Assembly (NCBI GenBank): GCA_012728785.1
Contig: JAAYEK010000143.1
Location: 1 to 33,749, forward strand
Source of the DNA: Bacillota bacterium
GTDB taxonomy: Bacteria > Bacillota > UBA4882 > UBA8346
Length of the DNA: 33,749 nt
Reading direction: 5' to 3'
A model generated the notes under the pieces. The model saw nothing but the letters and a program-made list of their open reading frames with translations, was not told where the DNA came from and searched no databases. Position numbers and translations under genes: made by a program. Within the stretch, counting starts at the first letter, position 1, and each line of letters starts with the position of its first letter. This document shows positions 1 through 25,406 of the stretch, piece by piece.

Positions 1-3000
1 GCGGAATCTTTTAATTGGATAACTCCTCCACCTGCCACGCCGGCGGAATGGATTATGCCGTCGATCTTGCCATACTGTTGAATAATTTGTTCGAAAAGCG
101 CTTTCATGTCCTCAAAACTATTGACATCTGCCTGGGCCACGGTTATTTCCGCCCCGTTTTGTTCAAAGCCTTTGATTATTTCAATTTTCTTTCGAATCTC
201 ATCCTGTTCATCATGGGTCGCTATCCAATTATCCCATTCATTCTTTTGGGGAAAGGCGGATCTTCGCGTTAAGATCAACTTGACATTTTTAATACCGGAA
301 AGGTGTTCGGCAATTGTTAATCCAATACCGCCTATCCCACCGGTAATCAAATAGATACCACCATCTTTCAGTTTGGCCGGTTTCTCCGGCTTTTCTTTTA
401 TTTCATCCAATTCTAATTTATCGAAAACTTGAACATAACGCTCATGCCTGCGATAAGCAACCAAAGGCTCAACTTGATGGTGGCGCAATTCGGCTAAAAT
501 ATCATCCACAAACGAACTCCAATCGATTGGAGCGGAGGACAAGGGTATGTCAATATCAATATTTCGACAGGATATCTGCTGGAACTCCTGGGATATAACT
601 CTGCATGGACCTGTAATGACAGCCTTTTCAGGATATAATATATTATTATCAAATACGGGATGCAGGTTATTGGTGATCACAAAGAGTTTAATTTTATTAG
701 TATCCTTTTTAGTCAAAGCTTGGGTTAAAAATAGTAGACTGTTAAAACCGAGTTCGATACATTCTTCCACAAAGTCCAATCTTGAGGTTATATTCTGAGG
801 CGGTTGGGTTAACCATAAATGGGCGATATTTTCCGGTTGCCGCCCAGAATCAAATAAGTTCCGGATTAAGGAATCATAATCTTCTTTTACGGAAGGGTTA
901 ATCGTAAATAAATCATCGCTCAACTGCTCGAATTTCTGTCCCTGCTTGACGATGATAACTTGATTATCTTTTGGTAGCAGCCGTTCTTTGATTTGCCCAC
1001 CAATACCCAAAGCATCGGTGAAGATTAACCATACTTTGTGGGATTCCAGATCTTCCCCATCAATTCGGATGTTAAAAGACCGCTTCCACACAGGCGCATA
1101 TACCCATTCTGCAATATTATCATTCTTTTTGATCTGCTTATTAGAGGAAAAAGCAGTCGTTTGGTTATCGTCACCCTCAAACCAAAAATGTCGTTTGTTA
1201 AAAGCATATGTCGGCAACGGAATTCTTCGCTTTTTATCTTTACGGTAATATTTACGCCAGTTAATATTCTTGCCGTTTTGCCATATTTGGGTTAGCGCCG
1301 ACATAAAAACTTTGTCATCCTCCCCATTCTGGGCCGGATGTGGTAAAGTAGTCAAAACCACATGTCCGGATTGGCCTTCTATATTACTCTTGGCCAAACT
1401 GGTTAAGACTCGACCGGGCCCTATCTCTACCAGTATTTTATCCGAACCGTCGAGAAGGCCCTGAATCCCCTGACTAAATTGTACAGTCCGCCGCATATGT
1501 TGGGCCCAATAATTAGGATCTGTCGCTTCATGGGCCTCAATCCATTTGCCGGTCACATTAGAAATGTAAGGGATCTTCGGGGGATTAAGCTTTATTTTTT
1601 GCAACGCTTGCGTAAATTCCCCAAGTATCGGCTCTACCATCGGCGAATGGAAAGCATGGGAAGTCATCAGCCTTTGGTAATGAATCTGTTTTGAATTAAA
1701 AATATTTTCCAAGGCCGTAATCTCTTCAAAAGGGCCGGCAACCACATTCAAACCAGGGGCATTATTCACCGCCAAGGCCAGTTTATCCCCTAATAAAGGC
1801 AGTAAATCCTCCTGGGTTGCTGAAATGCTGAGCATTGCCCCTTTAGGCAACTTTTGCATGAGTTTACTACGAGTAACCAGAATGGATAAAGCATCGGTTA
1901 TATCAAATACACCAGCAACGCAAGCAGCAACATATTCTCCCAGACTATGACCAATCATATATTGAGGCGTTATTCCAAAACTTTCAAATAGCTTTACCAA
2001 CGCATACTCGATAATAAATATGGCGAGCTGGGCGATTTGTGTTTCATTGATCTGAGCCGATGCATTGGCAATATCCGATTCTTCGGGAAAGATTATTTTA
2101 TGTAAATCCAGATCAATCTTTGAAGTTAAAAATTCACAACAAAAATCGACTTGTTCTTTAAATACTCTCTCACGTCGGTATAATTCCTTCGCCATATTCA
2201 CATGTTGGGAACCTTGTCCGGTAAACATGAAAATTAATTCTTTCCGGTTTTTTTCGTTATTGAAGGTAAATGAGTTGGTTTCTAGCTGATCAACTAGCCC
2301 ATCAATCATTTCCTGAATGTTACTCCCCATAACCAGGCGACGATAATTAAAATGCTTACGACCCGCCTGTAAAGTATAGGCCATATCGGTCAAGTTTACC
2401 TGGGGATTCTCTTTCAGATACTGGATTAAATTCTCCGTATTCTTGTTAAGAGAAATTTCCGATTTAGCGGAGAGAGGAATTAGGTGAATCGATTGGTTTT
2501 CTTTTGTCTCCTCCACTAAAGGAGCTTCTTCAAGAATAAAATGGGCGTTAGTTCCTCCAAATCCAAAAGAACTGACTGCCGCCCTACGGGGGTATTTTGT
2601 TGTTTTCCAGTCAGTGAGAGTAGTATTAACATAAAAGGGCGAGTTTGCAAAATCTATCTCCGGATTCGGTTTTTTAAAATTAATCGAAGCCGGAATCTTT
2701 TTATTCTTTAAGCATAACACTACTTTAATGAGTCCCGCGATCCCCGAAGCAGCATCCAGATGGCCAATATTTCCCTTCACTGAGCCAATCGGGCAATATT
2801 GTTTTTGATCGATTTCGGTGCGATAAGCTTCGTTTAACGCTGCCATTTCAATGGAATCACCTACAATGGTTCCTGTTCCGTGGGTTTCAACATATGAGAT
2901 AGAATCCAGTTCCACTCCCGAACTAGCCAGCGCTTCCAGAATAACCATGGATTGCCCTTCAATGCCGGGAGCAATAAAAGAAGCTTTCGAGGCGCCGTCA

Positions 3001-3839
3001 TTATTAACGGCAGATCCTTTGATCACGGCATGAATCGTATCTTTATCCGCAAGAGCATCCTCCAGCCGTTTTAAAACAATAACTCCTATGCCATTACCAA
3101 AGAGGGTTCCTTTGGCGTCAGCGTCAAAGGGTCTACAATGCCCGTCGGGCGAGAAAATACTACCCGGCTGATAGGTATAACCGGCTTTCTGTGGCACATT
3201 AATTACGCAGCCCCCGGCTATGGCTATTTTACACTCATCCAACAGCAAACTTTGACATGCAAGATGGACAGCGGTTAGCGAAGTGGAGCAGGCGGTCTGA
3301 ATGTTATAAGTGGGTCCAAACAAATTTAACTTATAGGCGATACGGGTGCTTGTGGAATAGATACCATTACCTGTTGATACATTAGAGTTTTCAATAATCG
3401 AACTGGCTGTCATAGGAATGTATTTCAAAATATGAAACAGATATGTATTCATCTTAGTCCCGGTAAAAACTCCAACGGATTTTTCTCCATCAATATAACC
3501 CGCTCCCTCCAGAGCTTCCCAGGCGCATTCCAGCAACAAACGCTGCTGAGGGTCGATCATGATAGCTTCCGCAGGTGTACAGTCGAAAAAATCCGAGTCA
3601 AAAAGGGCTATATCATCAATAATGGAGGCTGCCTTGACATAATTTGGCTTTTGAAGTTCCTCCGGTTCGACCCCATTCTCCAGTAACTCATCATCACTAA
3701 AAAAAGTGATGCTTTCTTTTTCGGCGCACAAGTTTTCCCAAAATTCTTCCGGACTCTTCGCGCCTGGTAAACGACAGGCCATACCTATTATAGCAATATC
3801 CAGACCTTGCCCTTCGTTATTCTTATCGGGTTCACTCAT
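1..3839 (-). CDS. Type I polyketide synthase KS-AT-KR, 3' end cut off by the window
   Basis: The reading frame opens with ATG at 3839 and stays open to base 1, giving at least 1279 residues. The KS (about 10-435) has a normal active site, QTACSTSL with Cys184, and the HGTGT and NIGH histidine motifs. The AT (about 540-830) is complete: GQGSQ near 541, GHSLGE with nucleophile Ser632, and HAFHS at 728-732, a motif usual for malonyl-CoA specificity. A KR structural half follows (about 912-1160), then the NADPH-binding TGGIGGIG at 1166. The sequence ends inside the KR, so its catalytic Ser/Tyr and any carrier or release domain are not visible. The start overlaps the stop of the upstream PKS gene by 8 bases and has an AAGGAG-type ribosome site inside that gene, so the two are probably translationally coupled. 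This is the only intact AT of the three PKS proteins and may also serve the other two (inference). Confidence 0.95.
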   Translation of the reverse strand, partial: MSEPDKNNEGQGLDIAIIGMACRLPGAKSPEEFWENLCAEKESITFFSDDELLENGVEPEELQKPNYVKAASIIDDIALFDSDFFDCTPAEAIMIDPQQRLLLECAWEALEGAGYIDGEKSVGVFTGTKMNTYLFHILKYIPMTASSIIENSNVSTGNGIYSTSTRIAYKLNLFGPTYNIQTACSTSLTAVHLACQSLLLDECKIAIAGGCVINVPQKAGYTYQPGSIFSPDGHCRPFDADAKGTLFGNGIGVIVLKRLEDALADKDTIHAVIKGSAVNNDGASKASFIAPGIEGQSMVILEALASSGVELDSISYVETHGTGTIVGDSIEMAALNEAYRTEIDQKQYCPIGSVKGNIGHLDAASGIAGLIKVVLCLKNKKIPASINFKKPNPEIDFANSPFYVNTTLTDWKTTKYPRRAAVSSFGFGGTNAHFILEEAPLVEETKENQSIHLIPLSAKSEISLNKNTENLIQYLKENPQVNLTDMAYTLQAGRKHFNYRRLVMGSNIQEMIDGLVDQLETNSFTFNNEKNRKELIFMFTGQGSQHVNMAKELYRRERVFKEQVDFCCEFLTSKIDLDLHKIIFPEESDIANASAQINETQIAQLAIFIIEYALVKLFESFGITPQYMIGHSLGEYVAACVAGVFDITDALSILVTRSKLMQKLPKGAMLSISATQEDLLPLLGDKLALAVNNAPGLNVVAGPFEEITALENIFNSKQIHYQRLMTSHAFHSPMVEPILGEFTQALQKIKLNPPKIPYISNVTGKWIEAHEATDPNYWAQHMRRTVQFSQGIQGLLDGSDKILVEIGPGRVLTSLAKSNIEGQSGHVVLTTLPHPAQNGEDDKVFMSALTQIWQNGKNINWRKYYRKDKKRRIPLPTYAFNKRHFWFEGDDNQTTAFSSNKQIKKNDNIAEWVYAPVWKRSFNIRIDGEDLESHKVWLIFTDALGIGGQIKERLLPKDNQVIIVKQGQKFEQLSDDLFTINPSVKEDYDSLIRNLFDSGRQPENIAHLWLTQPPQNITSRLDFVEECIELGFNSLLFLTQALTKKDTNKIKLFVITNNLHPVFDNNILYPEKAVITGPCRVISQEFQQISCRNIDIDIPLSSAPIDWSSFVDDILAELRHHQVEPLVAYRRHERYVQVFDKLELDEIKEKPEKPAKLKDGGIYLITGGIGGIGLTIAEHLSGIKNVKLILTRRSAFPQKNEWDNWIATHDEQDEIRKKIEIIKGFEQNGAEITVAQADVNSFEDMKALFEQIIQQYGKIDGIIHSAGVAGGGVIQLKDS

Positions 3840-6800
3840 CGTTTCCTTCTCCTTCCGAAAACTTTAGCTGATGTTTTTTATTAAGTAGCTGATTCCGGCG
3901 GCTCAATGCTTCCTTTCTTTTACTTAAAATTTCCGATCTCATCTGTTTGGCGGAAGCATCCTCCTCCCCAAGCAACTGGGAAAGATCACGAATCGTTGCT
4001 TTTTGATAGAGTATCGCAGCCGGTATTTTTCGACCAAAAGCCGAGCTTATCTCATTCATAACATTAATTGAGATCAACGAATCGCCTCCGAGATCAAAAA
4101 AGCTATCATCGATACCGATTTTGTCGATACCAAGGCAATTCTCCCAGATAGCGGCTAACTTTTTTTCTGTCTCACTCCCAGGGGCAATAAAAAGTGTTTT
4201 AAGTTCAGGCCTTGGATGCTTAACATTTGCAGATTTTTTTTCGGTTTCATTGATATTCAAATGGACATTACCAAGTTGTAATATTCTCATCTGTAAATTT
4301 GTTGTTGATACAATGAGCCGACTACCGGTAAAAGCTGTAATAATTTTTTGAAAAGCCCGAATACCCTCCTCCGGTTCAATCGCATCTTTATAAATTCCTT
4401 CCTGAAGGCGCCGGTTCTTGCCAGTTAACTGCCAAATATCCCAACTGACAGAAAGCCAATAAGCGCCTTCCCGAGCTGCAAAACTATCCAGAAAAGAACA
4501 TTGCGCCGCATTAATGATCTGTCCCAAACCGCCTAATAACGGCGCCAATGATGAAATGAGCATTAAAAAGTCAAGTTGATACGGGGCTAGCGCCTTTTTT
4601 AAATGATAGACACTATTAATTTTAAGGTTGAAGTAATCGGCTGGTTTCCCATAATCAATTTCCTGTATTGGATAAAAGCCGGTATGGTTAAAATCATCTG
4701 CGCCATGAATAACGCCATGTAGTGCTCCATAGCTTTCAATAACCTGTTTTATTAATTGCTCTACTGGTTCATATTCACTTAAATCCATACAATCCCATTG
4801 TAACCTGCCGGTTTCTTCTAAATCGATGATTTTTTGAATTTTATTACCAACAATCTCTTCTTTATTTGACCATAAAGACCAAGAACCACGTTGGGGAAAT
4901 GATTTGTTTTCAATTAGTATAACCTTCGCCTGGCATGTCTTTACCAAATATTCGGCTATCAATAAACCGATACCGTTTGAATCATCAGTCACAAGATAGA
5001 CGCCTTCCCGGCGAAGAGGTTTATGGAGTTCCTTTAACTGTATCTGCTCATAGTTTGGTAACCAACGACGTTTGCCACGAAAAGCGATGATTTTATCAGA
5101 ACCGGCGGTTTGGATCTCTTTGAAAATCCGGCTGACATTTTCTACGACACCCGAAGAAGATATATTTGTTTGTTTCAAATCTAGGCAATAGCAATCAATA
5201 TACGGATACTCTATAGGAATAACACGCACAGGCGATAAAAGCGTCGCTTTCTCCGGACAGATGATGTCGTTATTTTCCACTTCCAAAAGATGGTCGGTTA
5301 TAATCCACATTTGATAGCTGAAATCCGGTAAAGAAGGCTTTTCCAAAGCGACAGCCGTATAAATTACACTCCAAAATCCTTTTTCCTGGAATGCGTCAAA
5401 AGTAGTTGTATCGGTTAGGCTATCCTTACCAAAGTCCGGATCATTATTCAAGCTCCATAGGTGGAGAATTTTACTAGGAACCACATCTTGGTCTTTCAAA
5501 GTAGTGAATAAAGCTTGATAATCTCTTTGCTGCCCGGGGTGAATGCTGTAACAATCTTTAGCCAACGTCTGAAATGAGCCTCCGGCATAAACTAGAATGA
5601 CTCGTTGCTTATTTGCCTTTAAATACCTGTCTAGCTCGGAGGAAAACGGTGATTGATCACAAAATACCAGCCATTTTTCTTCTTGTTCAAAAACATAGTC
5701 CTTATTCGGTAAATTGGAACTTTTCCAACCCGGAAAATAGAACCAGTTGTCGGGATCATTTTCTTTAATAATATTCTTTTCTATGGATGGGCGCGCGTCT
5801 TCTTCCAAAGCTCCTTGCTGTATGCGTTCGATCCAATAACGCTCCCTCTTAAAAGGATAAGTCGGTAAGGGGATCCTTCGTCTGGTTTCATTTATGTACA
5901 AACCTTGCCAGTCGATTTTCACTCCTTTTAACCATAATTCTCCAAGGACATGGAAAAAAGATGATACATCGGATTCGTTCCCCTGATAATCATTATTGGT
6001 TCGGTAGATCAAAGCATTTTTCAACCCTGTCATTGCATCCGAGTTAAGGCTTGATCGACCGATTTGCAAAAATATTTTTTCCGTTTCATCGTCGGTAATC
6101 TTAAGTAAACCGCTGGTAAACTGTGACGTTGTTTTTCGAACTGCCAGCCAATAATCGGCAGACAATGCTTCACTATCGCTAATCCAATGTCCAGAAATAG
6201 CTGATATAAAAGGGATTTTCGGCGCATTTCTTTGAAGTTCCCGGATGGCATTTTGAAAATCAAAATGCGCCTGTTCAGATATGTTATTTTCCGCAGAAAG
6301 ATCCTGTCCAAGATATAGCAAGAAAACTTGTTCAACTGAGAGCACCCCGGCAACGCAAGCAGTAGTGTATTCTCCTACGCCCTCGCCAATCATAGCCTCC
6401 GGAATGATACCGATGGTGATGAGAAAAGCCGCAAGTGAGTACTCAGTTATAAAATGATCAATCTTCTTTAGTATAGGAGACCCTTCGAGCTCATAGATGG
6501 ATTGACGGGTAATCCGAACATTAGGCTGACCGGTTTTGCTTAACAATTCATTTAAGATGTCAAGACATTTATCGTATTTTTCTTTGAAAAGCGGTTCATG
6601 TTCATATAAACCACAAGGTATATAATCTTCCTGATTATCCTCCCCCGGGAAAACAAAAACAACCGGTCTGTTTTCCAAATCAGTAAATGAAGAAACGATT
6701 TTGGAGTTGTCGCCGGACTGTAAAATAGCGACTGCCTCTTTAAGATCACTAAATACAGCAAATAATCTGTAGTTGAAATCCTTTCTGCCTGTCTGCAGTG

Positions 6801-8253
6801 TAAAGGTCACATCCGCCGGATTTAGCCCGCTGTTTTGGCGAAGTGATTCCACTAGTGCTTCTCTGGTAAGAGTTAAAGCGTTTTCCGTTTTTGCGGATAA
6901 GAGCAACAAATGACAATTCCTTACACTGTCGGTCACCTTTACTTCCGGCGCTTCCTCAAGCACAAGATGGACATTGGTGCCTCCGACTCCAAAAGAACTC
7001 ACCCCAGCGCGACGTAGTGGATGTTCCCATTCTTTTAATTCGGTATTAACGAAAAATGGTGTGCTTAGAAAGTCTATTTCCGGATTGGGCGCCTTAAAGT
7101 TCAAACTGGCCGGAATTTGGCGGTAATGTAAAGCCAAAACAGTTTTTATTAAACTGCTGATACCGGCTGCTCCCGCTAGATGCCCAATTTGCGTTTTCAC
7201 AGAGCCGATAGCGCAATAATTCTTTTCGGTGGTCGTCTGCGCTTTAAATGCTTTCGACAAAGCTCTGATTTCCACCGGATCGCCCATTTTCGTGCCCGTT
7301 CCATGAGTCTCTACATAACTAATGGTCTCTGCGCCACAACCGGCTACGGAAAGAGCTTCGGCGATGACAGCAGCTTGACCATCCACTCCGGGCGCGGTAT
7401 AACCAACCTTATCCGCCCCGTCGTTATTCATAGCCGAACCTTTGATAATGGCAAAAATGGTATCGCCTTTGGCTAAAGCATCTTCCAGACGCCTTAATAC
7501 CACAACTCCAACGCCACTCCCAAAGACCGTTCCGTTGGCCTCCGCGTCGAAAGCCCGGCAATAACCATCCGGACTTACAATACTGCCGTCCGAATACTGA
7601 TAACCATACTGTTGCCGTACATCAATGGAAATCCCTCCGGCAATTGCAATATCACTTTCTTGATTAAGCAGATTTTGGCAGGCCATATGAACAGCCACTA
7701 AAGAGCTGGAACAAGCTGACTGTACTGTACAACTCGGTCCGGTTAGATTCAATTTATAAGACACCCGTGTGGCCAGATAATCATTTCCATTACTCACATC
7801 GATCTGAACCGGGTCCAATTGATTTAATAGTTCCGGGTTTGATAACAGATTATAGAGTAAATAAGTATTCGTCGTAGCGCTGGCGAATACGCTGATAATT
7901 TCAGCGGTCTTTTCAGGAGAATAACCTGCGGATTCCAACGCCTCCCAGGCGCATTCCAAGAAAATCCGATGCTGAGGATCCATTAATGCCGCTTCTCGCG
8001 GTGTATATCCGAAGAACGACGCATCGAATAATTCTATATCGTCAAGCATAGAGCAGACTTTTACATAGCCTGGTTTTTGTAAGCTTCGGCGATCCACTCC
8101 CCTGGATAATAATTCTTCATCATCTAGAAAGCGTATCGCCGGAATACCGTTTTTCAGGTTTTGCCAGTACGCCTCGATGCTATTAGCACCGGGGAAACGG
8201 CCACTCATGCCGATGATAGCAATTTCACAACCCGAGTATTCTCTCTCTTTCAT
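3832..8253 (-). CDS. Type I polyketide synthase, KS with inactive AT and inactive KR, ACP (1473 aa)
   Basis: Domain order is KS (about 8-435), AT remnant (about 530-750), KR (about 830-1320) and ACP (about 1360-1428). The KS looks active, with Cys181 in QSACSSSL, His317 and His358. The AT is degenerate: the GHSxG motif reads GEGVGE (623-628), so the nucleophile Ser is Gly625 and its neighbouring His is Glu624. About 70 residues holding the small subdomain and the HAFH histidine are missing, and the N-terminal GQGSQ is lost. The KR keeps Lys1211 and Ser1235, but the catalytic Tyr is Asn1248, the following Asn is Cys1252, and the cofactor loop reads VTDDSNGIG, so reduction is not expected. The ACP has the phosphopantetheine Ser1392 in LGGDSL. 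A charged helical tail (about 1436-1462) follows. The gene lies 30 bases after the upstream PKS gene and overlaps the next. It probably extends a chain only if malonyl units are loaded in trans. Confidence 0.95.
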   Translation of the reverse strand: MKEREYSGCEIAIIGMSGRFPGANSIEAYWQNLKNGIPAIRFLDDEELLSRGVDRRSLQKPGYVKVCSMLDDIELFDASFFGYTPREAALMDPQHRIFLECAWEALESAGYSPEKTAEIISVFASATTNTYLLYNLLSNPELLNQLDPVQIDVSNGNDYLATRVSYKLNLTGPSCTVQSACSSSLVAVHMACQNLLNQESDIAIAGGISIDVRQQYGYQYSDGSIVSPDGYCRAFDAEANGTVFGSGVGVVVLRRLEDALAKGDTIFAIIKGSAMNNDGADKVGYTAPGVDGQAAVIAEALSVAGCGAETISYVETHGTGTKMGDPVEIRALSKAFKAQTTTEKNYCAIGSVKTQIGHLAGAAGISSLIKTVLALHYRQIPASLNFKAPNPEIDFLSTPFFVNTELKEWEHPLRRAGVSSFGVGGTNVHLVLEEAPEVKVTDSVRNCHLLLLSAKTENALTLTREALVESLRQNSGLNPADVTFTLQTGRKDFNYRLFAVFSDLKEAVAILQSGDNSKIVSSFTDLENRPVVFVFPGEDNQEDYIPCGLYEHEPLFKEKYDKCLDILNELLSKTGQPNVRITRQSIYELEGSPILKKIDHFITEYSLAAFLITIGIIPEAMIGEGVGEYTTACVAGVLSVEQVFLLYLGQDLSAENNISEQAHFDFQNAIRELQRNAPKIPFISAISGHWISDSEALSADYWLAVRKTTSQFTSGLLKITDDETEKIFLQIGRSSLNSDAMTGLKNALIYRTNNDYQGNESDVSSFFHVLGELWLKGVKIDWQGLYINETRRRIPLPTYPFKRERYWIERIQQGALEEDARPSIEKNIIKENDPDNWFYFPGWKSSNLPNKDYVFEQEEKWLVFCDQSPFSSELDRYLKANKQRVILVYAGGSFQTLAKDCYSIHPGQQRDYQALFTTLKDQDVVPSKILHLWSLNNDPDFGKDSLTDTTTFDAFQEKGFWSVIYTAVALEKPSLPDFSYQMWIITDHLLEVENNDIICPEKATLLSPVRVIPIEYPYIDCYCLDLKQTNISSSGVVENVSRIFKEIQTAGSDKIIAFRGKRRWLPNYEQIQLKELHKPLRREGVYLVTDDSNGIGLLIAEYLVKTCQAKVILIENKSFPQRGSWSLWSNKEEIVGNKIQKIIDLEETGRLQWDCMDLSEYEPVEQLIKQVIESYGALHGVIHGADDFNHTGFYPIQEIDYGKPADYFNLKINSVYHLKKALAPYQLDFLMLISSLAPLLGGLGQIINAAQCSFLDSFAAREGAYWLSVSWDIWQLTGKNRRLQEGIYKDAIEPEEGIRAFQKIITAFTGSRLIVSTTNLQMRILQLGNVHLNINETEKKSANVKHPRPELKTLFIAPGSETEKKLAAIWENCLGIDKIGIDDSFFDLGGDSLISINVMNEISSAFGRKIPAAILYQKATIRDLSQLLGEEDASAKQMRSEILSKRKEALSRRNQLLNKKHQLKFSEGEGNDE

Positions 8254-8283
8254 CTTCTAATACCTTCACTCATTTCCCACATA

Positions 8284-11200
8284 TTATTTATTCCGTAAAA
8301 TACGTTCCCGCCTTTTTTGCCCTCGGTCAAGGCTTTTCTGTATTTGTTCCGTATCATCTTCCGTTCCTTGATTACGGCTTAATATTAATGAACTGAGCAT
8401 TTTAATGGTCGGGCTTTCATAAATGTCTAGTGAAGACAATTGATAATTGTACCGATTCGTTATGTCAGCAATCAATTCAACTCCAACCAGGGAATTACCG
8501 CCTAACTCAAAAAAGTTATCGTTAATACCAACGGATTCCAGTCCCAATACCCTCCCCCATACTTCGGCCAATTCTTTTTCCAGTTTAGTCTGAGGAGCAA
8601 TATAACTATTCTGTAGTGCTGGCCGTGGTAAACGAGCCACATTTTCCTTTTTTAGCGGTTGTTTATTTGCATCCGTCCGCGATGAATCCTGGTTCCCCAG
8701 CGTCCATCTTCTAAGCCGCCTATCCAAACTACTCGTCGAAACAAGGTATTGATTCCGAAGCGGATAATTAGAAAATATGCGTATGAACGTGTCTTCCCCT
8801 TCTTCAGCGGTGATAGCCAAATCAAGCAAAGGTGTTCCAAAATCCTTATACATGAGGCTAGTGGAGGAGAAGGCATCCCAATTGACACTCATCCAAAAGC
8901 TAGTGGAAGATTGGTTACAGCTGTTAGCAAAAGCATCCATAAAAAGGTTTCCGGCCGCATATTCGGCCAACCCTAATCCACCAAGCATAGCCGAAAGGGA
9001 AGAGCATAACAGACAGAAATCCAAAGTTTCTTCTTTTAAAACCTCTTTCAGTACATAAAGGCCGTTCCATTTGGTTTTAAGATTACCAGCCGGATCCCGG
9101 AAGCTGATATTCCGGATTGGTTTGAAAATCTCATCATTAACTGCGCCGGCTGCGTCGATAACGCCATTTAGGCCTTTAAACCTCGTTTTGACGTATTGGA
9201 GCGCCGCTTTCATCTGCTCCGCATCAAGTAAATCCGCTTTTAAATAGATAACTTCACAATCCATTTCATCTAAAACTTGCAGCTTTTTTATTTTTGAAGA
9301 TATCGGATCGTCCTCTCCATGAGCGAGTAACCAAGCATCCCATTGTTCCTTTTCCGGTAACGAAGTAGAGCCGGTAAGCGCCAGCTTCACTTTACCTTGC
9401 TTGGCCAAGGCTCTTGCCGAACAGTATCCGATGGTGCCCAATCCGCCTAAAATCAGATAGACGCCGTCTGCTTTGAGGAGGGGTTTACCTCCAGTTTTAG
9501 GCAGTCGTAAAGCTTCCACCGTCTGAATAAAGCGTTGCCCGCCCCGACAAGCGATGACTTGATTTTCAGTTGCGCCATACATCACTTCCTGCGTCAACTC
9601 CATCACCAACTGTTTTTCTTGGACGCTACCGGGCACCGGGAGAACAACATCCAGATAGCGGCAGGTAATATGCGAGTATTCCTGGGGTATAACCTTGCAT
9701 GCCCCTAATAAAGTGGTTTTTTCCGGAGATATTGGCTCAATCCCGCTTACATCCAGTGTTTGGCTGGAAATAATGGTAAACAGCATATTTTTCCGGGAAA
9801 GGCCATTCAAGGCAGTACCTTGTTCGATAGCTTTAACCAAAAAAAGCAGGCTGTTAAAACCATTAGCTAAGCAGTCACTCAGATAATCAGTGTTTACGCC
9901 ATCCCGTTTCGAAACATATAAACTCCTGAAGTCAATTACATTACCCGGCTCCAAACCATTCTGATTTAAATCCTCGATCAACCGTTCGTAATCCTCAAAT
10001 ACCAGGGGATTCATCTGGTAATGATCTGAGGTTAGCCTAGCAAAATTCGGACCGAAACTGACGATTATGACCTGTAAGTCATGGCCTTTCAATATATTGA
10101 TGCATTGGTCGATTAACGAATCATTTTGCTGTTTTGTCTGTTCAGGAAGTAAAACCAGATATGGGCCTTCCCTCCGGACACTAGCAACATCGATGTTGAA
10201 GTTCTCCTTTTTCCACGCCGGCGCATAAAACCAGTTTTCGGGGGCCATTTTTAAATCTTCCGGTGGGAGTTCCGCCTCATTATCCTTGGTTTCCATTTTT
10301 ACCGGTTCGACCCAATGGCTCTTATATTCAAAAGGATAGGTGGGTAGAGGTATACGGTGAGAAATATCTCCTTCAGGATGATGCAACTTTTCTATATCCG
10401 GATTACAACCGGCCAGCCACAATCGGCCGACGGTTTCGAGTAAGGCCGCATATTCCGTCCGGTAGCCATATGTCTTGGAACTGCAATTTAGTAGCTGATA
10501 TTTTCCTAAATCCAAATTCTCAGCGAGAATCTCCCGCTTTATTCTATCTGTTAACTCAGTCCCCGAATTTACTTCCAGGAGAATCGCGGCCGAATCGGCC
10601 AATAGGCTTTTAATGATCTCGATAAATCCGACAGCTTCGTGTCGCTGTTGCCAATAGAGAGAATCCGTCGCTTCCGCCTTCGTTATCCAATTACCGGACA
10701 ATCCCGAAAGGAAGGGAATCATAGGTTCATTGAATACCGACGGGTTTATCGGAGAAAAGTTATTAGCAATATTGTTGATATTAATTACCAAGCTTAAAGC
10801 ATCTTGCAAACTCATAACCTCTGACAGGCATGCAGCAACGTATTCACCGACACCTTGCCCCAGCATACCCTGGGGTTTAATGCCCCAATCGAGCAAAACT
10901 TGAGCCAATGCATATTCAATCGTGAAAATTACCAGCGGGGTTATACCTTTTTTATTAATCTCCTCAAGAGATGCCTGCATTTCCTCTTGATTCGCCGCAT
11001 AAAAGTACTTTTTAAGATCTGTTGTCAGGAAGGGACTTACATATTCCAGGCAGGTATCCAAAGAGCTTTTAAAAAGGGGAATATCCCGATATGTATCGGT
11101 GGTAAAGTATTCAAAGCGGGTTAGTTCATCAGGGAACAAAAAGAATACTAACCGGTTTCCCGCTCCCTCCGCCGCATCTGTGAAAACACGTTCAGGTGTA

Positions 11201-12741
11201 ACTGATTTTAAGGCCTGAACTGCATCGTCGATACCGGTACAAACCAGAGCCCGTCTATAATCGAATCGGTTTCTGCCCGCATGTAGAGTATAGGAGACAT
11301 CGCCCAAGTCGACATTTGAATCTGTTTCCAGATAACGGACTAAATTCCGGGTAGCTTTCTCCAAAGCGGTCTCCGTTTTGGCAGATAAAAGTAGTAACGA
11401 GGCTGACCTCGGATTACCCTTTTGTTCAGCTTCCGGGGGTTCAGCGACAATTATATGTGTATTGGTTCCCCCCATGCCAAAGGAATTCACTCCTGCGATC
11501 CGGTATGTGGAGTCCCAGTCGCATAGTTTTGGATTGATATAAAAAGGGCTGTTTTCCAGATCCAATTCCGGATTCGGTGTAGTGAAATTAATATGTGGAG
11601 GAATCTTTTTATGTTTTAACATTAAAACGGTTTTGATAAGACCTGCTATACCAGATGCGGAATCTAAATGGCCAATGTTGGGTTTAACCGACCCAATGGC
11701 GCAAAAATTCTTTTTATCGGTTACTGCCTCAAATACCTGTTTAAGAGAGGTCATCTCAATTGGGTCGCCGACTCTGGTACCGGTACCATGGGCCTCAATA
11801 TAGCTGATGTCTTCGGAGGTAACCCCTGCAATAGCCTGGGCAATGGCAAATACCTCGCTTTGTCCTTCGACACCCGGCGCCATATAACTGACTCTCACCG
11901 CACCGTCATTATTAACGGCGGAACCTTTAATCACCGCCCAGATGGTATCACCATCCGCAAGCGCATCCGCTACCCGTTTCAGTAACACAACACCAGCGCC
12001 ATGTCCTGCTACAAATCCATCCGCAGCAGCGTCAAAAGCCCGGCAATGGCCGTCGGAAGAAGTCGTGCCGCCTTCCATGTATAGATAACCGGATTTTTCG
12101 GGGAAATGTACGGAAACACCGCCCGCTAACGCCATATCGCTTTCATAATTCAATAAGCTCTGGCAGGCATAATGCACAGCTGTCAAAGAAGTTGATGACG
12201 AACTCTGGATGGTTACCGCCGGACCTTTTAAGTTTAAGCGGTAGGCGACTTCTGTGGTTAAACTATCTTTATCATTTCCAATGGAAACCTGTAAACTTTC
12301 TACCGATTCAACATTTCGAATCAGATGCAACAGATTATGCAGCATATAGGTATTCATGCTGGAACCGCCGAAGATACCGACACGCCCTTGATGATTATCC
12401 GGGCAATATCCTGCGCTTTCAAAAGCTTTCCAGGCGCATTCCAGAAAGAGACGATGCTGTGGATCCATTAAAGCGGCTTCCCTGGCATGTAATCCAAAAA
12501 ACTGGGCATCAATCAGATCAGTGTTGCCCAAAACGCCCCTTGCTTTAATAAAATTAGGTTTTTTAATCAATTCCGGATCAATACCGGATTCTAACAATTC
12601 TTCATCGGAAAAGAATGAAATGGATTCGATACCGTTACAAATATTATGCCAATATTGCTCCACATTTTCCGCGCCTGGGAAGCGTCCTGCCAGACCTATA
12701 ACAGCAATGCCTTCTTTTTCGTTTTGCTTAAAATTGTACAT
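8284..12741 (-). CDS. Type I polyketide synthase, Cys-less KS with inactive AT, intact KR, ACP (1485 aa)
   Basis: Domain order is KS (about 10-435), AT remnant (about 530-760), KR (about 835-1345) and ACP (about 1383-1455). In the KS the active-site Cys is replaced by Ser182 (QSSSSTSL, against QTACSTSL in a sister protein), while His318 and His358 remain. The AT motif reads GQGVGE (628-633), with Gly630 where the nucleophile Ser should be. About 80 residues, including the HAFH region, are missing. The KR looks functional: LGGLGTIG cofactor loop (1098-1105), Lys1224, Ser1248, Tyr1261 and Asn1265. The ACP carries Ser1417 in LGGNSL, within a DNFFELGG context more typical of peptidyl carriers. 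A charged tail ends the protein. A GAAGGGAT ribosome site precedes ATG 12741, 36 bases after the NRPS gene. A KS with both His but no Cys recalls decarboxylating loading KS domains, so elongation by this KS is unlikely (inference). Confidence 0.95.
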   Translation of the reverse strand: MYNFKQNEKEGIAVIGLAGRFPGAENVEQYWHNICNGIESISFFSDEELLESGIDPELIKKPNFIKARGVLGNTDLIDAQFFGLHAREAALMDPQHRLFLECAWKAFESAGYCPDNHQGRVGIFGGSSMNTYMLHNLLHLIRNVESVESLQVSIGNDKDSLTTEVAYRLNLKGPAVTIQSSSSTSLTAVHYACQSLLNYESDMALAGGVSVHFPEKSGYLYMEGGTTSSDGHCRAFDAAADGFVAGHGAGVVLLKRVADALADGDTIWAVIKGSAVNNDGAVRVSYMAPGVEGQSEVFAIAQAIAGVTSEDISYIEAHGTGTRVGDPIEMTSLKQVFEAVTDKKNFCAIGSVKPNIGHLDSASGIAGLIKTVLMLKHKKIPPHINFTTPNPELDLENSPFYINPKLCDWDSTYRIAGVNSFGMGGTNTHIIVAEPPEAEQKGNPRSASLLLLSAKTETALEKATRNLVRYLETDSNVDLGDVSYTLHAGRNRFDYRRALVCTGIDDAVQALKSVTPERVFTDAAEGAGNRLVFFLFPDELTRFEYFTTDTYRDIPLFKSSLDTCLEYVSPFLTTDLKKYFYAANQEEMQASLEEINKKGITPLVIFTIEYALAQVLLDWGIKPQGMLGQGVGEYVAACLSEVMSLQDALSLVININNIANNFSPINPSVFNEPMIPFLSGLSGNWITKAEATDSLYWQQRHEAVGFIEIIKSLLADSAAILLEVNSGTELTDRIKREILAENLDLGKYQLLNCSSKTYGYRTEYAALLETVGRLWLAGCNPDIEKLHHPEGDISHRIPLPTYPFEYKSHWVEPVKMETKDNEAELPPEDLKMAPENWFYAPAWKKENFNIDVASVRREGPYLVLLPEQTKQQNDSLIDQCINILKGHDLQVIIVSFGPNFARLTSDHYQMNPLVFEDYERLIEDLNQNGLEPGNVIDFRSLYVSKRDGVNTDYLSDCLANGFNSLLFLVKAIEQGTALNGLSRKNMLFTIISSQTLDVSGIEPISPEKTTLLGACKVIPQEYSHITCRYLDVVLPVPGSVQEKQLVMELTQEVMYGATENQVIACRGGQRFIQTVEALRLPKTGGKPLLKADGVYLILGGLGTIGYCSARALAKQGKVKLALTGSTSLPEKEQWDAWLLAHGEDDPISSKIKKLQVLDEMDCEVIYLKADLLDAEQMKAALQYVKTRFKGLNGVIDAAGAVNDEIFKPIRNISFRDPAGNLKTKWNGLYVLKEVLKEETLDFCLLCSSLSAMLGGLGLAEYAAGNLFMDAFANSCNQSSTSFWMSVNWDAFSSTSLMYKDFGTPLLDLAITAEEGEDTFIRIFSNYPLRNQYLVSTSSLDRRLRRWTLGNQDSSRTDANKQPLKKENVARLPRPALQNSYIAPQTKLEKELAEVWGRVLGLESVGINDNFFELGGNSLVGVELIADITNRYNYQLSSLDIYESPTIKMLSSLILSRNQGTEDDTEQIQKSLDRGQKRRERILRNK

Positions 12742-12777: not shown

Positions 12778-15700
12778 TTATCGTAAACGATTCATTTTAT
12801 TTTTAAGCATCTCATTGCGTTGTCCCAGGATTTGCTTTCGTTTTTCCATTTCGTCTTGGATTTCATTGAATATATTCTTTTGATTATCATTTTCACTAAT
12901 GCTCTGGGCCAATAATCGAATCGTCGGATGTTTGAACATGTCTACCAAAGGTATATCACATTGGCAAGTAGCTTTTATCCTTTGATGCGCCTGAGTGATC
13001 AAGATGGAATTTCCGCCTAATTCGAAAAAGTTATCATTGATACCGATTTTATCAATCTTCAATATATCCTGCCAAATTTGTAAAACCTTTTGTTCCGTTT
13101 CGTTTTCGGGGGCCAGATATGCAGTATTTAAAACCGGTCGCATGGCTGTCGGTTCCGGTAAAGCGTCCCAGTTAACCTTCCCGTTGGAATTAAGCGGGAT
13201 ACTGTCCAGTCTTTCAAAAGCAGCGGGAACCATATAAAACGGAACCTTTTGGACCAACCAATTGTGCAATTCGCTATGGTTCAAACGGTCATCGTCAGAG
13301 ACAAAGTAGGCGACCAGCTTTCGGTTACCGGACGGATCGTCTCTGGTAACGGCCACAGCATCCGAAACTTTAGGATGTTTACGTAAAGCGGTTTCCACCT
13401 CGCCTAATTCGATCCGGTAACCCCGGATTTTCACTTGTTGGTCCTTTCGACCGAGATATTTTAAAACCCCTTCCGGTAACCAAGCGCCGAGATCACCGGT
13501 TTTAAAGAGCCGTTCTCCCGGTTTAAAGGGATGGGCGATAAATCGTTCATCGGTAAATATCGGATTATTAAAATAACCGCGCGCCAATCCTAAACCACCG
13601 ATGTATATTTCACCCGTACAACCCGGCGGCATGAGCTCCAACTGTTCACCCATCACATAAACGTCGGTATTGATAATCGGACGGCCGATTGGCAGTCCCC
13701 CCATGAATTGCTCATTGATTTCTTGGATTGGATGATATGTGGAACAAACTGTTGTTTCCGAAAGACCATAAGAATTGATGATCGCGACCGAGTTTGTCAA
13801 AGTGTCGATATCATTAATTTGCAGGGCTTCTCCACCACTCAAAATAAGACGTAGGCGGGCAAGATCCTGTTTCTTATGATTCAAGCCGGCAATGAATGTC
13901 GGTACGGTGCTTATGATCGAAACATGGTGGTCCGCAATTAAGGAAAACAATTTTTCCGGATCAAGATAATCCTGGGGTCTAGATAATACCAGAGTCCCGC
14001 CGGCACAGATCAAAGGAAGTATCTCCCCGACAAAACTTGCGGAAGCAATGGAGGTTAATGGCAATATCTTATCTTCGGTAGTCGGATTGTAAGTAAGAAT
14101 AAACGAATGAATCAAATTAGTGATCCCTTGATGAGTAAGCATTACACCCTTAGGAATTCCCATGGAGCCGGAAGTATAAATGATACAAGCCAGGTTATCC
14201 GATCCCGCTTTTTCCCCTTCCCTGTCTCCTTTTACCGGGAAACGATCAATGCTTTCCCATTCCCGATCAATAGCGAGAATCCTAACTTCCGAAGCTTGAC
14301 CTTTCAGTTGCGGCGTTAAATAATCCATCGATAAGACAAATGGACATCCTGTCTCGGATAAAATAAAGCCGATCCGTTCTTCCGGCCAACCAGGATCCAA
14401 CGGCAAGTAAGCTCCACCAGCCATCAGAATCCCTAAAATGCTCACCAGCAGCTCCAAGGAGTGCTCCATGTATATACCGATACATGTCTCCGGTCCTATT
14501 CCGTTTTCAAATAAATATCCAGCCAGTTTACCCGCGCGGAGACACAATTCACCGTAGGTCAGCTTTTCTCCTTTATACTCTATGGCGACATGTTCCGGAG
14601 TTTTAGCAGCCTGTCGCCGGAATAATTCCACAATGGTTGTACCGACATAAGTGTGATCCGTATCTCCATTCCATTCTCCAAGCAGCTTTTCCCTTTCGAC
14701 TAGGGAAAGTAACGGTAATTCCGTTAAGGGAGATGAAGGTTGATTAATAATTCCTGTAAGCAAAGTTTCCAAATGAACACACATACGCCGGATAGTTTCT
14801 TCTTTATATAAATCCTTGTTAAATTCGAAAGAAGCAACCAAATTGTTATCGGCTTCTCCCATGGTCAAGGTCAAATCGAATTGCGCAACCTTCTGATCCA
14901 GCACCATCGATTCAAGTTTTAGCCCCGCCAACTTCATTGGAGCGCCCTCAATGTTCAGTGAGAAGGCGGTTAACCCTTCCTTATTAAATTTATAAGCTCT
15001 TTGATAGGCGAACATAATCTGAAACAATGGTGAACGGCTGTAATCCCGTTCCGGTTTTAGTTCGTTCACCAATAGATCGAATGGATAATCCTGTCCGGCC
15101 AGCGCTTCCAGTAGGTATGTCTTTGTCTGGTCTAATAAATCGGTAAATGAGAAGTCAGGTTGCGGTTTAGACCTTACCACCACCGAATTAACAAAATAAC
15201 CTAAAGTTTGTGTAAATTCCCTTTCGCTACGACCGGTTGTGGGAATACCGATTAAAAAATCCTCCTGTTTCGTATATCGGTAAATAAGGAGCTGGAACGC
15301 TGCCAAGAGTAATGTATGCATGGTAACATTAACTTTCCTGGCGAATTCTTTTACTTTTTCCGAAAGCGTTGCGTCAAAGCGGACCGTATAAATTTGTCCT
15401 TGATAGGTTTGTACGGGCGGACGCGGAAAATCCACCGGCATGTTCAGAACCGGCAACTGCCCGGCTAATTGTTTCATCCAATAAGAACGTAATTTTTCAC
15501 CCTTGGCCGAAGAAAGCATCGCTTTTTGCCAATGGACAAAAGCGGCGTAGTTTTGGGTTCCCGCTAATGAGGCGAAATCCTGTTCTTGAGCTTCAGGATT
15601 ACATTCTGTGGTATAAAACTGGCCCAATTGTTCAATGATCAGACTAAGAGACCAGAAATCCGTAATGATATGATGCAAGACCATCAGTAAAATGGTTTCT

Positions 15701-18213
15701 CGATCAGATTTTCTAAACAGAACGATCCGCAATAACGGGCCCTTTTCAAGATCAAAAGGCCTTCTTGCTTCCTGTTCTATCCGACTATTTATAGTTTCAT
15801 CGTTCAAAACCGAGGCGTCGACGAGGTAATACTCCGGTTCTAAAGTCTCATGAACCTTTTGCACCTCAGTCTTCAAGATATTGGAATAGTTAAATGTGGT
15901 CCGTAAAATCCCATGCTGCCGTACTAATTTTTGGAAAGCCCTGAATAAAGCATCTGCATTTAATCCGTTGGTGATTCTCACCGCGCAAGGAACATTATAG
16001 GCAGAACTTTCCGGCGCTAACTGATACAGGAACCAGAGCGCCTTCTGTCCATGAGATAGGGGATATTCGGCGTAATTATGAGAAGGGACAAATTCCAAAG
16101 CGTCTGAAAATTCCGATTCTTTTTGGATGGATGGCTCGTTAAGTTCCCGGATGATCAGCTCACTAATCTGAACGACGCTAGCCCCCTGCAAAATATCTAT
16201 AATTGGGATATTAACACCTAAGTTGCCATCAAGTATGTTCTTTATTTCTAAAGCTGTTACGGAGTCGACGCCTAGCGAGATAATCGAGGTCTGGCAGTCA
16301 ATGCGGGAAACCGGCAGAGCCAATGCCTGGGAAAGTTGGATCTGCAGGTAACGGCAGAGAAGTTGCCCTAATAATGCAGGATCATCTTCATTTTTGATAT
16401 CCGCTAAAAGATCCGGTTCCTCAACCGACTGCATAGAGGCCACAGAAATCTTCGCGGTACTGATGCCGACAAGTTCCAGTCCCTGATTGATAAATAAATC
16501 CCGACAGCGGTAACGTTGGATTTTTCCGCTAGTGGTTTTGGGAATACTAAAATATCTGATAAAAGCAATGGTATGTACCGGAATCTCATAAACTTCCGTA
16601 ATCGCCTGCCTTATACATAGGGCTATTTCTTCAAGGTCGATATTTTTATAATCCCGTTTTAATTCTTCAACGATTACCAGCTCTTCACATCCATCCATCT
16701 CAACGGAAAAAGCGGCGCAAGCTCCGGTGTTCAAAGCAGGATGGGCTTCACTCGCTATAAGCTCAATGTCCTGGGGATAATAGTTACGTCCTTTATAGAT
16801 GATCAAATCCTTGATTCGTCCGGTGATATATAGTTGATTTTCACAAATAAAACCCAAATCGCCGGTACGGAGATAAGGTCCGGCTTGGGTATCTTTAATA
16901 TAAGCTTGAAAAGTATCCTTGCTCATCGCCGGCTTCCGCCAGTATCCTTGCGCGACACTTTCACCGCTAACCCATACCTCGCCAATTTCGTTATCCAAAC
17001 AGAGTGTACACTCCTGCGGATTTACAATGACAACCCTTTGATCGGCGTGAGTTTGGCCGCAACCAACCATGGCAAAATAATCGGTTCTGAAATCATTCTC
17101 AGCGCCGTTAATGTCCGGCGGACATGGAGTAGTGCAATGAATAACTTTATTTTGAGAAAGAGCGTTTTTGCTGATAAAACGCACTGTCGGTTCCAGCTCT
17201 TTTTCAACGCCGGTAACAAACAAAGTCGCTTCGGCCAAACCATAACAGGGATAAAAAGCTTTACGTTTAAATCCACATGACTTAAATGCCTTTTCAAAAC
17301 GATCCAACACTTCACTATGTATCGGTTCCGCGCCATTAAAAGCTAGATCCCAACTGGATAAATCGAATTTACTCTTTTCTTCCTGGGAAATTTTATTGAC
17401 ACATAAATCATAAGCAAAGTTAGGACCCCCACTGGTTGTAGCCTTGTATCGGGTAATTGCATGTAGCCAACGGTCAGGTTTTTGAATGAAATCAAAAGGA
17501 GACATCAAGGTAACTGGAAATCCGCCATACAGGGGTTGCATAATTCCACCGATTAAACCCATATCGTGATAAGGGGGTAACCAGATCACGCCCCGGCTTG
17601 AAGAATCATGCCCGAAACATGAGTAAATCTGGGATAAATTGTGCATGATGTTGCCGTGACTTACTATCACACCTTTAGGAGAAGCCGTCGAACCTGATGT
17701 ATACTGAAGAAAAGCGGGGCTATTCTTTTCGACAAAAACCGGAGTCTCCTCCTCCGGCTGATCCTCAGCAGGATCGTCGATTAATATCCATATTACCGTA
17801 TCAAGTCCATAATGATTGATAAATTTTAGCCGAACTTTATTGGATATCTCTTGATTTGTCAGAATAATCCCTACATTGGCGTCACTCAATATTGCTTTGA
17901 TTCGTAAATCCGGCTTATTGATTCGCGGCAACGGAGTTGGAATGGCTATTGCCCCGGCGTATAAACATCCAAAAAAAGCTTTGACAAAATCGAGTCCGGG
18001 TGAGAAAAATAATAATACAGGTTGTCCGCTGCCTCCATTCCTGATGATTTTGGAAGCAATCTCGCGGGCTGCGAAGTCCAGTTCGGCATAATTCAAGTTT
18101 ACTTCTTTAGTTTCACCGTCTAATAGATAGGTATATCCAATTTTTTGAGATTGGTTTTTTGCGCGCCATTTTAATATGGCCGCCAAAGATGCACATGAAT
18201 TCAAGTTCAACAT
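12778..18213 (-). CDS. Hybrid FAAL-ACP-C-A-PCP nonribosomal peptide synthetase (1811 aa)
   Basis: The N-terminal fatty acyl-AMP ligase (about 1-585) has the AMP-binding YTSGSTASPKG (171-181), the YHDMGLIGG segment and RIKDLIIYKGRNYYP (466-480), as in FAAL enzymes that pass acyl-adenylates to a carrier protein. An ACP follows (about 612-690; Ser651 in LGVDS). The condensation domain (about 716-1165) has the active-site HHxxxDxxS at 847-855. The adenylation domain (about 1195-1690) has YTSGSMGIPKG (1346-1356) and the A10 Lys1679. The final PCP has Ser1736 in LGGNS, and a charged tail follows. By alignment to GrsA the specificity code reads A-S-G-S-I-S-S-V-C-K. The usual Asp235 is Ala1392, which argues against a standard alpha-amino acid. 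There is no epimerase, methyltransferase or thioesterase. It is the first gene of the operon and collinear with the PKS genes, so it probably starts the product with a fatty acyl chain. Confidence 0.95.
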   Translation of the reverse strand: MLNLNSCASLAAILKWRAKNQSQKIGYTYLLDGETKEVNLNYAELDFAAREIASKIIRNGGSGQPVLLFFSPGLDFVKAFFGCLYAGAIAIPTPLPRINKPDLRIKAILSDANVGIILTNQEISNKVRLKFINHYGLDTVIWILIDDPAEDQPEEETPVFVEKNSPAFLQYTSGSTASPKGVIVSHGNIMHNLSQIYSCFGHDSSSRGVIWLPPYHDMGLIGGIMQPLYGGFPVTLMSPFDFIQKPDRWLHAITRYKATTSGGPNFAYDLCVNKISQEEKSKFDLSSWDLAFNGAEPIHSEVLDRFEKAFKSCGFKRKAFYPCYGLAEATLFVTGVEKELEPTVRFISKNALSQNKVIHCTTPCPPDINGAENDFRTDYFAMVGCGQTHADQRVVIVNPQECTLCLDNEIGEVWVSGESVAQGYWRKPAMSKDTFQAYIKDTQAGPYLRTGDLGFICENQLYITGRIKDLIIYKGRNYYPQDIELIASEAHPALNTGACAAFSVEMDGCEELVIVEELKRDYKNIDLEEIALCIRQAITEVYEIPVHTIAFIRYFSIPKTTSGKIQRYRCRDLFINQGLELVGISTAKISVASMQSVEEPDLLADIKNEDDPALLGQLLCRYLQIQLSQALALPVSRIDCQTSIISLGVDSVTALEIKNILDGNLGVNIPIIDILQGASVVQISELIIRELNEPSIQKESEFSDALEFVPSHNYAEYPLSHGQKALWFLYQLAPESSAYNVPCAVRITNGLNADALFRAFQKLVRQHGILRTTFNYSNILKTEVQKVHETLEPEYYLVDASVLNDETINSRIEQEARRPFDLEKGPLLRIVLFRKSDRETILLMVLHHIITDFWSLSLIIEQLGQFYTTECNPEAQEQDFASLAGTQNYAAFVHWQKAMLSSAKGEKLRSYWMKQLAGQLPVLNMPVDFPRPPVQTYQGQIYTVRFDATLSEKVKEFARKVNVTMHTLLLAAFQLLIYRYTKQEDFLIGIPTTGRSEREFTQTLGYFVNSVVVRSKPQPDFSFTDLLDQTKTYLLEALAGQDYPFDLLVNELKPERDYSRSPLFQIMFAYQRAYKFNKEGLTAFSLNIEGAPMKLAGLKLESMVLDQKVAQFDLTLTMGEADNNLVASFEFNKDLYKEETIRRMCVHLETLLTGIINQPSSPLTELPLLSLVEREKLLGEWNGDTDHTYVGTTIVELFRRQAAKTPEHVAIEYKGEKLTYGELCLRAGKLAGYLFENGIGPETCIGIYMEHSLELLVSILGILMAGGAYLPLDPGWPEERIGFILSETGCPFVLSMDYLTPQLKGQASEVRILAIDREWESIDRFPVKGDREGEKAGSDNLACIIYTSGSMGIPKGVMLTHQGITNLIHSFILTYNPTTEDKILPLTSIASASFVGEILPLICAGGTLVLSRPQDYLDPEKLFSLIADHHVSIISTVPTFIAGLNHKKQDLARLRLILSGGEALQINDIDTLTNSVAIINSYGLSETTVCSTYHPIQEINEQFMGGLPIGRPIINTDVYVMGEQLELMPPGCTGEIYIGGLGLARGYFNNPIFTDERFIAHPFKPGERLFKTGDLGAWLPEGVLKYLGRKDQQVKIRGYRIELGEVETALRKHPKVSDAVAVTRDDPSGNRKLVAYFVSDDDRLNHSELHNWLVQKVPFYMVPAAFERLDSIPLNSNGKVNWDALPEPTAMRPVLNTAYLAPENETEQKVLQIWQDILKIDKIGINDNFFELGGNSILITQAHQRIKATCQCDIPLVDMFKHPTIRLLAQSISENDNQKNIFNEIQDEMEKRKQILGQRNEMLKNKMNRLR

Positions 18214-25155: not shown

Positions 25156-25320
25156 AAAAATCATCTCCGCATATAGAATGGTATTTAGCTTCGGAATTAT
25201 TTTAAGTTGCTCTATTCCACCATGATTTAAAGATGAAATAGTATAATTCCATTTTATTTCAGGTTAGCTAAAAGCACATTTTTTATTATTGCGCATTCAA
25301 ATTAGGATATACGGAAGATT

Positions 25321-25354: not shown

Positions 25355-25406
25355 TCCAATTGCTTCTATTTTAAATTAGGCGGTTTCGTAATTCCAAAAT
25401 TTATCA

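What the first reader, a model, noticed from the sequence alone, without database searches (positions are those of the whole stretch)
1..12741. Three consecutive PKS proteins have complementary broken and intact domains
Seen in sequence: the protein at 8284-12741 has no KS cysteine and no AT serine but a full KR tetrad. The protein at 3832-8253 has an intact KS, no AT serine and no KR tyrosine. The partial protein at 1-3839 has an intact KS and AT. Both damaged proteins keep intact carrier domains and long open frames. Inference: KS from the second, KR from the first and AT from the third act together, so one working extension module is spread over several polypeptides that still look like full modules. 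This would break simple collinearity of module and product.
Basis: partly seen in the sequence, partly recalled or inferred. Interest (0 to 1): 0.85.

Follow-up and report, generated by a model that had tools for sequence, protein, structure and literature searches.

The report
Complementary broken domains in polyketide synthases
In one bacterial biosynthetic cluster, two neighbouring polyketide-making proteins have each lost different catalytic parts but stay under selection, so they probably work as one shared unit fed by an acyltransferase from elsewhere: an unusual variant of a known principle.

Summary
The genes run on the minus strand: 12778-18213 (FAAL-ACP-C-A-PCP), 8284-12741 (KS Cys to Ser, dead AT, intact KR, PCP), 3832-8253 (intact KS, dead AT, dead KR, PCP), then 3-3839 (intact KS and AT, KR cut by the contig end). 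Both dead ATs have lost more than the serine: GQGSQ and the whole ferredoxin-like subdomain are gone, while the alpha/beta core still folds (model pTM 0.82). Contig C190 of the same genome carries a third such KS-dead AT-PCP protein, and the amicoumacin assembly line of a Bacillus-type genome has another, of separate origin. Decay is unlikely: frames are open, sequencing error is very unlikely, and the Cys-less KS is about as conserved as its active neighbours. AT supply in trans is well supported and is a known principle (colibactin ClbG, irumamycin, amicoumacin). The supplier could be the third protein's AT, a discrete AT or FabD. A KR in the first protein serving the second is plausible but unproven. 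No orthologous cluster was found, so coupled loss could not be tested. Verdict: partly supported; a new variant of a known kind.

The parts
12778..18213 (-). P0001, first protein of the line: fatty acyl-AMP ligase, ACP, condensation, adenylation, PCP (1811 aa)
   Evidence: Pfam, NCBIfam FAAL hits; 42% identical paralogue on contig C144
8284..12741 (-). P0002: KS(Cys to Ser)-dead AT-KR-PCP (1485 aa)
11446..12714 (-). P0002 KS domain, structurally conserved (151 of 181 conserved sites)
12196..12198 (-). codon TCA (Ser182) at the KS nucleophile position; two base changes away from TGT/TGC
10306..11157 (-). P0002 dead AT: GHS to GQG, no GQGSQ, no ferredoxin-like subdomain
8869..9465 (-). P0002 KR catalytic domain, tetrad and GGxGxxG intact
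8386..8574 (-). P0002 PCP, LGGNSL intact
3832..8253 (-). P0003: KS-dead AT-dead KR-PCP (1473 aa)
6955..8223 (-). P0003 KS domain, Cys181 and both His intact
5818..6672 (-). P0003 dead AT: GHS to GEG, ferredoxin-like subdomain missing; core modelled with linker at pLDDT 76.8, pTM 0.82, nearest solved fold ZmaA AT
4429..5004 (-). P0003 KR, NADPH motif, Tyr and Asn lost
3970..4161 (-). P0003 PCP, LGGDSL intact
3..3839 (-). P0004: KS-AT-KR (KR cut by the contig end), overlaps P0003 by 8 bases
1305..2234 (-). P0004 AT, all motifs intact (GQGSQ, GHSLGEY, Arg, HAFHS)

Best explanation
P0002 and P0003 are long-established, selected, specialised paralogues, not wreckage. Neither is a full extension module. 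P0001 makes an N-acyl-aminoacyl-PCP. P0003 supplies the only condensing KS of the pair. P0002 supplies the only working KR, and its Cys-less KS serves as a scaffold or partner. Malonyl is put onto their PCPs in trans by a complete AT, most simply that of P0004, otherwise a discrete AT or FabD. P0002 and P0003 thus give at most one cycle of extension and reduction, and P0004 the next. Shown: the residue and subdomain losses, the intact partners, the open frames, the protein-level constraint on the Cys-less KS, and the retained AT core fold in a model. Inferred: AT supply in trans, reduction by the KR of P0002 of a chain made by the KS of P0003, and the order of transfer.
For: Motif table against 21 intact relatives. 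Conserved-site retention: KS of P0002 151/181 against 159/181 for P0003 and P0004; KR of P0002 14/15 against 10/15 for P0003; AT ferredoxin-like subdomain 24 of 29 conserved sites deleted in P0002, P0003 and C190. The P0002 KS has the same mean identity to relatives as the P0004 KS (0.57), and codon-position differences P0002/P0003 of 0.38/0.24/0.65 match P0003/P0004 (0.35/0.26/0.65), so it is still constrained as a protein. KS end branches are 0.7-0.9 changes per site, so the duplications are old. C to S needs two base changes, and the genes lie 36 and 30 bases apart or overlap by 8, with Shine-Dalgarno-like stretches. A dead-AT KS module also occurs on C190 with a KS keeping 173/181 sites, and in the amicoumacin line, whose described five malonate units equal the five KS modules counted here, one without a working AT (PMC4894447). 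ClbG loads PKSs that lack functional ATs (PMC8402462). In irumamycin, AT12 has GHS to Gly and AT11 is proposed to load T12 (PMC11672594). Cross-module enoylreduction is shown for azalomycin F (PMC9899208).
Against: No product is known and no orthologous cluster was found, so coupled loss of these residues is untested. The C terminus of P0004 and everything after it is missing from the assembly. The KS tree weakly puts P0002 with P0004 (93/80) rather than with P0003, though a P0002+P0003 clade is not rejected (p-AU 0.14). The KR of P0002 may act only on its own PCP. No retrieved paper described a ketoreductase serving another polypeptide's carrier in this family.
Confidence: 0.45

Rival explanations
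1. P0002 is a non-extending pass-through or skipped module, comparable to KSS domains. It carries or hands on the chain from P0001, its KR is idle or acts only on its own PCP, and P0003 extends without reduction. Malonyl for P0003 still comes in trans.
For: KSS domains (Ser for Cys) exist in polyene loading proteins directly after a ligase and ACP, as in RimA (PMC4540446), and P0002 likewise follows a ligase-containing protein. P0002 KS keeps both His and the Lys.
Against: RimA-type KSS modules have an AT and sit at the very start; P0002 has no working AT. An idle KR would be expected to lose its tetrad, as the KR of P0003 did.
Confidence: 0.27
2. P0002 and P0003 are simply two AT-less modules of a mixed cis/trans-AT line with one inactive KS and one inactive KR, used in order, with a discrete AT such as that on C12/C43 loading them; no special pairing.
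For: A discrete-AT fragment pair on C12/C43 and trans-AT-type KS proteins on C43, C274 and C16 in the same genome. ClbG precedent.
Against: The KS domains of C126 group with cis-AT cyanobacterial-type modules, not with the genome's trans-AT KS proteins. A dead KS in a module used in order blocks condensation on that module.
Confidence: 0.15
3. Plain decay: the cluster is being lost and the residues are gone by chance.
For: Several domains are dead, and no orthologous cluster is seen in close relatives.
Against: Open frames of 1473-1485 codons, constrained Cys-less KS, intact PCPs and spacing, the same subdomain removed from three ATs, and an equivalent dead AT in a producing antibiotic line.
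Confidence: 0.06
4. Assembly or sequencing error, or a chimera of two modules.
For: Fragmented assembly of 296 contigs; the contig ends inside P0004.
Against: Losses are many, in frame and spread over several domains; C to S takes two base changes; the same AT loss is on another contig.
Confidence: 0.02

Closest known systems
Amicoumacin assembly line (ami), first module of its second PKS as found in G163 (L104/L105)
   Same: KS-dead AT-carrier module among intact KS-AT-KR modules of the same family; AT shortened in the same region; line starts from an acyl-amino acid
   Different: That module has an intact KS and no KR; no Cys-less KS in the line; its AT loss arose separately (one clade rejected, p-AU 6.6e-5)
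Colibactin ClbC, ClbK, ClbO with discrete AT ClbG
   Same: PKSs without functional AT next to a PKS with cis-AT, loaded in trans (PMC8402462)
   Different: A discrete AT lies in that locus, none on this contig; complementary KS and KR loss was not noted there in what was read
Irumamycin module 12
   Same: AT GHS serine to Gly, neighbouring AT proposed to load the carrier (PMC11672594)
   Different: KS intact, no complementary KR loss; the proposal rests on a structure model only
Azalomycin F cross-module enoylreduction; aureothin AT
   Same: A domain of one module serves another; in azalomycin F on separate proteins (PMC9899208)
   Different: Donor module is active itself, and the recipient simply lacks the domain
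KSS loading proteins of polyenes (RimA, NysA)
   Same: Ser replaces the KS Cys, ligase and ACP upstream (PMC4540446)
   Different: They carry an AT and start the chain; P0002 has a dead AT and follows a C-A-PCP unit
Mycobactin MbtC/MbtD split module (own knowledge)
   Same: One extension module spread over two polypeptides
   Different: MbtC and MbtD simply lack domains, whereas P0002 and P0003 each look like whole modules

Membership tests
trans-AT (AT-less) PKS | modules lack a working AT | tested here: met
   P0002, P0003 and C190 lack Ser, GQGSQ and the subdomain
trans-AT (AT-less) PKS | discrete AT encoded with the line | tested here: inconclusive
   none on this contig, but the contig ends inside P0004; a discrete AT exists on C12/C43
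trans-AT (AT-less) PKS | KS belongs to trans-AT KS clades | tested here: not met
   KS groups with cis-AT KS-AT-KR modules, apart from the genome's C43 and C274 KS
cis-AT KS-AT-KR-PCP module | domain order KS-AT-KR-PCP | tested here: met
   AT remnant placed by alignment
cis-AT KS-AT-KR-PCP module | working cis-AT | tested here: not met
   P0002 and P0003 ATs dead by motif; only P0004 meets it
KSQ/KSS loading module | Cys replaced, His/His/Lys kept | tested here: met
   P0002 QSSSSTSL, HGTGT, SVKPNIGH
KSQ/KSS loading module | working AT in the module and place at the start of the line | tested here: not met
   AT dead; P0001 precedes it
split extension module (MbtC/MbtD type) | the active domains of one module lie on two proteins | tested here: inconclusive
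   by motif, KS active in P0003 only, KR in P0002 only, AT in neither; functional pairing is inferred
split extension module (MbtC/MbtD type) | each protein carries only its own part | tested here: not met
   both keep whole-module architecture with dead copies
KS-alpha/KS-beta (CLF) heterodimer | active KS pairs with a Cys-less KS | not testable with these tools
   no complex prediction available; Cys-less KS is conserved as a protein

The most novel reading that the evidence does not exclude
P0002 and P0003 form an obligate heterodimeric type I PKS module: the active KS of P0003 pairs with the Cys-less KS of P0002, as KS-alpha does with the chain-length factor in type II systems. The heterodimer holds one working KS, one working KR, two carriers and two pseudo-ATs that act as docking sites for a trans-acting AT.
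Probability: 0.1. Interest if true: 0.85.

Novelty: new variant of a known kind. Interest (0 to 1): 0.45.

Why it matters
Software and people assign one extension per module with a KS. Here two proteins that look like modules probably yield at most one, so a product predicted from the gene order would be wrong. The pair also looks like a stage on the way from cis-AT to AT-less lines: the AT keeps its core fold but has lost its active subdomain, at least twice independently. If the heterodimer reading holds, it would be a type I counterpart of the KS/chain-length-factor pair.

Tried and rejected
(1) Orthologous cluster to test coupled loss: none in 149 relatives, 398 phylum-wide, 29 of the class, 299 around G163 (mostly FabD hits) or the pattern scan of GTDB species (only relatives with intact domains). 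(2) Rest of the cluster: the contig start matches no other contig and no matching KR half was found. (3) Model of KS plus dead AT: too poor to use (pLDDT 54); linker plus dead AT alone was good. (4) One origin of all dead ATs: rejected when amicoumacin is included (p-AU 6.6e-5), not rejected for P0002+P0003 (0.14) or with C190 (0.065). (5) Docking tails: the C termini of P0001, P0002 and P0003 end in similar basic helices (by eye), which did not tell the order of contacts; not used. (6) NADPH-binding Arg missing in P0002 KR: looked damaging, but some intact relatives lack it too, so not counted as a defect. (8) A combined KS-AT core tree did not finish.
Full report
What is there. The window is the whole contig C126 of a 3.7 Mb, 296-contig genome. 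Every gene discussed lies on the minus strand. In reading order: P0001 (12778-18213; fatty acyl-AMP ligase, ACP, condensation, adenylation, PCP), P0002 (8284-12741), P0003 (3832-8253) and P0004 (3-3839), the last cut by the contig end. Gaps are 36 and 30 bases, then an 8-base overlap, with Shine-Dalgarno-like stretches before the starts, so this is one operon by its layout (inference).

Check of the residues. I aligned the modules with 21 intact relatives from cyanobacteria, Calditrichaceae, Thiotrichaceae and the amicoumacin line of G163. All 21 have the KS Cys and AT Ser. P0002 has Ser at the KS Cys, with His, His and Lys kept; its KR keeps GGxGxxG, Lys, Ser, Tyr and Asn. P0003 has an intact KS, while its KR has lost GGxGxxG, Tyr and Asn. 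P0004 has intact KS and AT. The PCP serines are intact in P0002 and P0003. The C to S change needs two base changes (TCA against TGT/TGC), which speaks against a read error.

More than a lost serine. In P0002 and P0003 the AT has also lost GQGSQ and the entire stretch with the malonyl-binding Arg and HAFHS, the ferredoxin-like subdomain (24 of 29 conserved sites deleted). What remains is the alpha/beta core and the linkers. An AlphaFold2 model of linker plus dead AT of P0003 is confident (pLDDT 76.8, pTM 0.82), and its best match among solved structures is the whole AT of ZmaA (TM 0.80 by query length; also the best sequence match). It reads as a pseudo-AT with a kept scaffold. A third protein of this kind (KS intact, dead AT, no KR, PCP) lies on contig C190 beside a second FAAL-NRPS on C144, a MATE-type exporter and a PvdQ-like acylase (the exporter was named by eye). 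The fourth case is in the amicoumacin line of G163: the first module of its second PKS has a dead, shortened AT. The gene order matches the published ami cluster, whose eight modules are said to add three amino acids and five malonates (PMC4894447). I count five KS modules with four working ATs, so that module must be loaded in trans. I found no statement of this in the passages I read, and I did not read the supplement.

Decay or design. The Cys-less KS of P0002 keeps 151 of 181 conserved sites, against 159 in P0003 and P0004. Its mean identity to relatives (0.57) equals that of P0004. Codon-position differences (0.38/0.24/0.65 against P0003) are those of a pair with intact motifs (0.35/0.26/0.65). 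End branches are 0.7-0.9 changes per site, with open frames throughout. Dead AT regions are less constrained (0.36-0.37 identity to relatives in the N-terminal core, against 0.54 for P0004) but still show fewer changes at second than at third positions. I read this as selection on the proteins as scaffolds, not wreckage. When the Cys was lost cannot be dated.

How it may work. If P0002 and P0003 are used at all, malonyl must come from another AT. P0004 has the only complete AT on the contig. The genome also has FabD (C19), a discrete AT probably split between C12 and C43, and PKS ATs on C38 and C185/C131. Condensation on this stretch can only be by P0003 (or P0004). Reduction can only be by P0002 (or P0004, whose KR is cut). 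The likeliest reading is that P0002 and P0003 together do at most one cycle of extension and reduction. The step from the KS of P0003 to the KR of P0002 is inference. Main rivals are a pass-through KSS-like P0002 and a plain mixed cis/trans-AT line. From my own knowledge, in animal fatty acid synthase a Cys to Ser change in the KS blocks condensation without raising decarboxylation, which argues against a KSQ-like decarboxylase role; I did not look this up.

Comparison with the known. Supply of malonyl-type units in trans to PKSs without a working AT is reported for colibactin (ClbG serving ClbC, ClbK, ClbO; PMC8402462). A Ser to Gly AT with a neighbouring AT proposed to serve its carrier is described for irumamycin (PMC11672594). 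Cross-module enoylreduction between separate proteins is shown for azalomycin F, where the aureothin AT is also cited as loading successive modules (PMC9899208). KS with Ser for Cys is known in polyene loading proteins after a ligase and ACP (PMC4540446). Not found in what I read: two successive proteins of whole-module layout with opposite KS and KR losses and the same AT loss. Hence a new variant of a known kind.

Limits. No ortholog, so no test of coupled loss. Unfinished P0004. The KS tree has weak inner support: P0002 with P0004 at 93/80, P0002 with P0003 not rejected (p-AU 0.14). No product. Only papers of the open library were searched. Activity is judged by motifs throughout; nothing was assayed.

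Noticed in passing
G000 contigs C144 (L026, L027) and C190 (L021): The contig ends overlap by 127 bases and join a second cluster: FAAL-ACP-C-A-PCP, MATE-type exporter, KS-dead AT-PCP, PvdQ-like penicillin acylase, with another acylase-like protein and sulfate-activation-type genes on C144. This looks like an acylated-prodrug pathway in which an acylase removes the lipid.
   Followed up: partly
G163 C1, L104/L105 joined at 23827-31074: In the amicoumacin-type line the first module of the second PKS has a dead, shortened AT, so one of five malonates must be loaded in trans.
   Followed up: partly
window 12778-18213: The adenylation domain of P0001 reads FVGEIL where amino-acid-activating domains usually have the Asp that binds the amino group (by eye), which may mean a beta-amino or non-amino substrate.
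   Followed up: no
window 19556-20096, minus strand: Two overlapping frames that look like one sigma-factor-like gene broken by a frameshift, next to a Fic-domain-like protein at 18709-19512 (by eye).
   Followed up: no
G000 contig C165 (L031) 1-500: A trans-AT-type KS start broken by frame changes at the contig end.
   Followed up: no
G000 contigs C12, C43, C274, C107, C16: Pieces of a trans-AT PKS-NRPS line, with a discrete AT probably split by an assembly gap between C12 and C43.
   Followed up: partly
G000 contigs C131 and C185: PfaA-like multi-ACP synthase pieces with KAS III-like and ligase genes.
   Followed up: no
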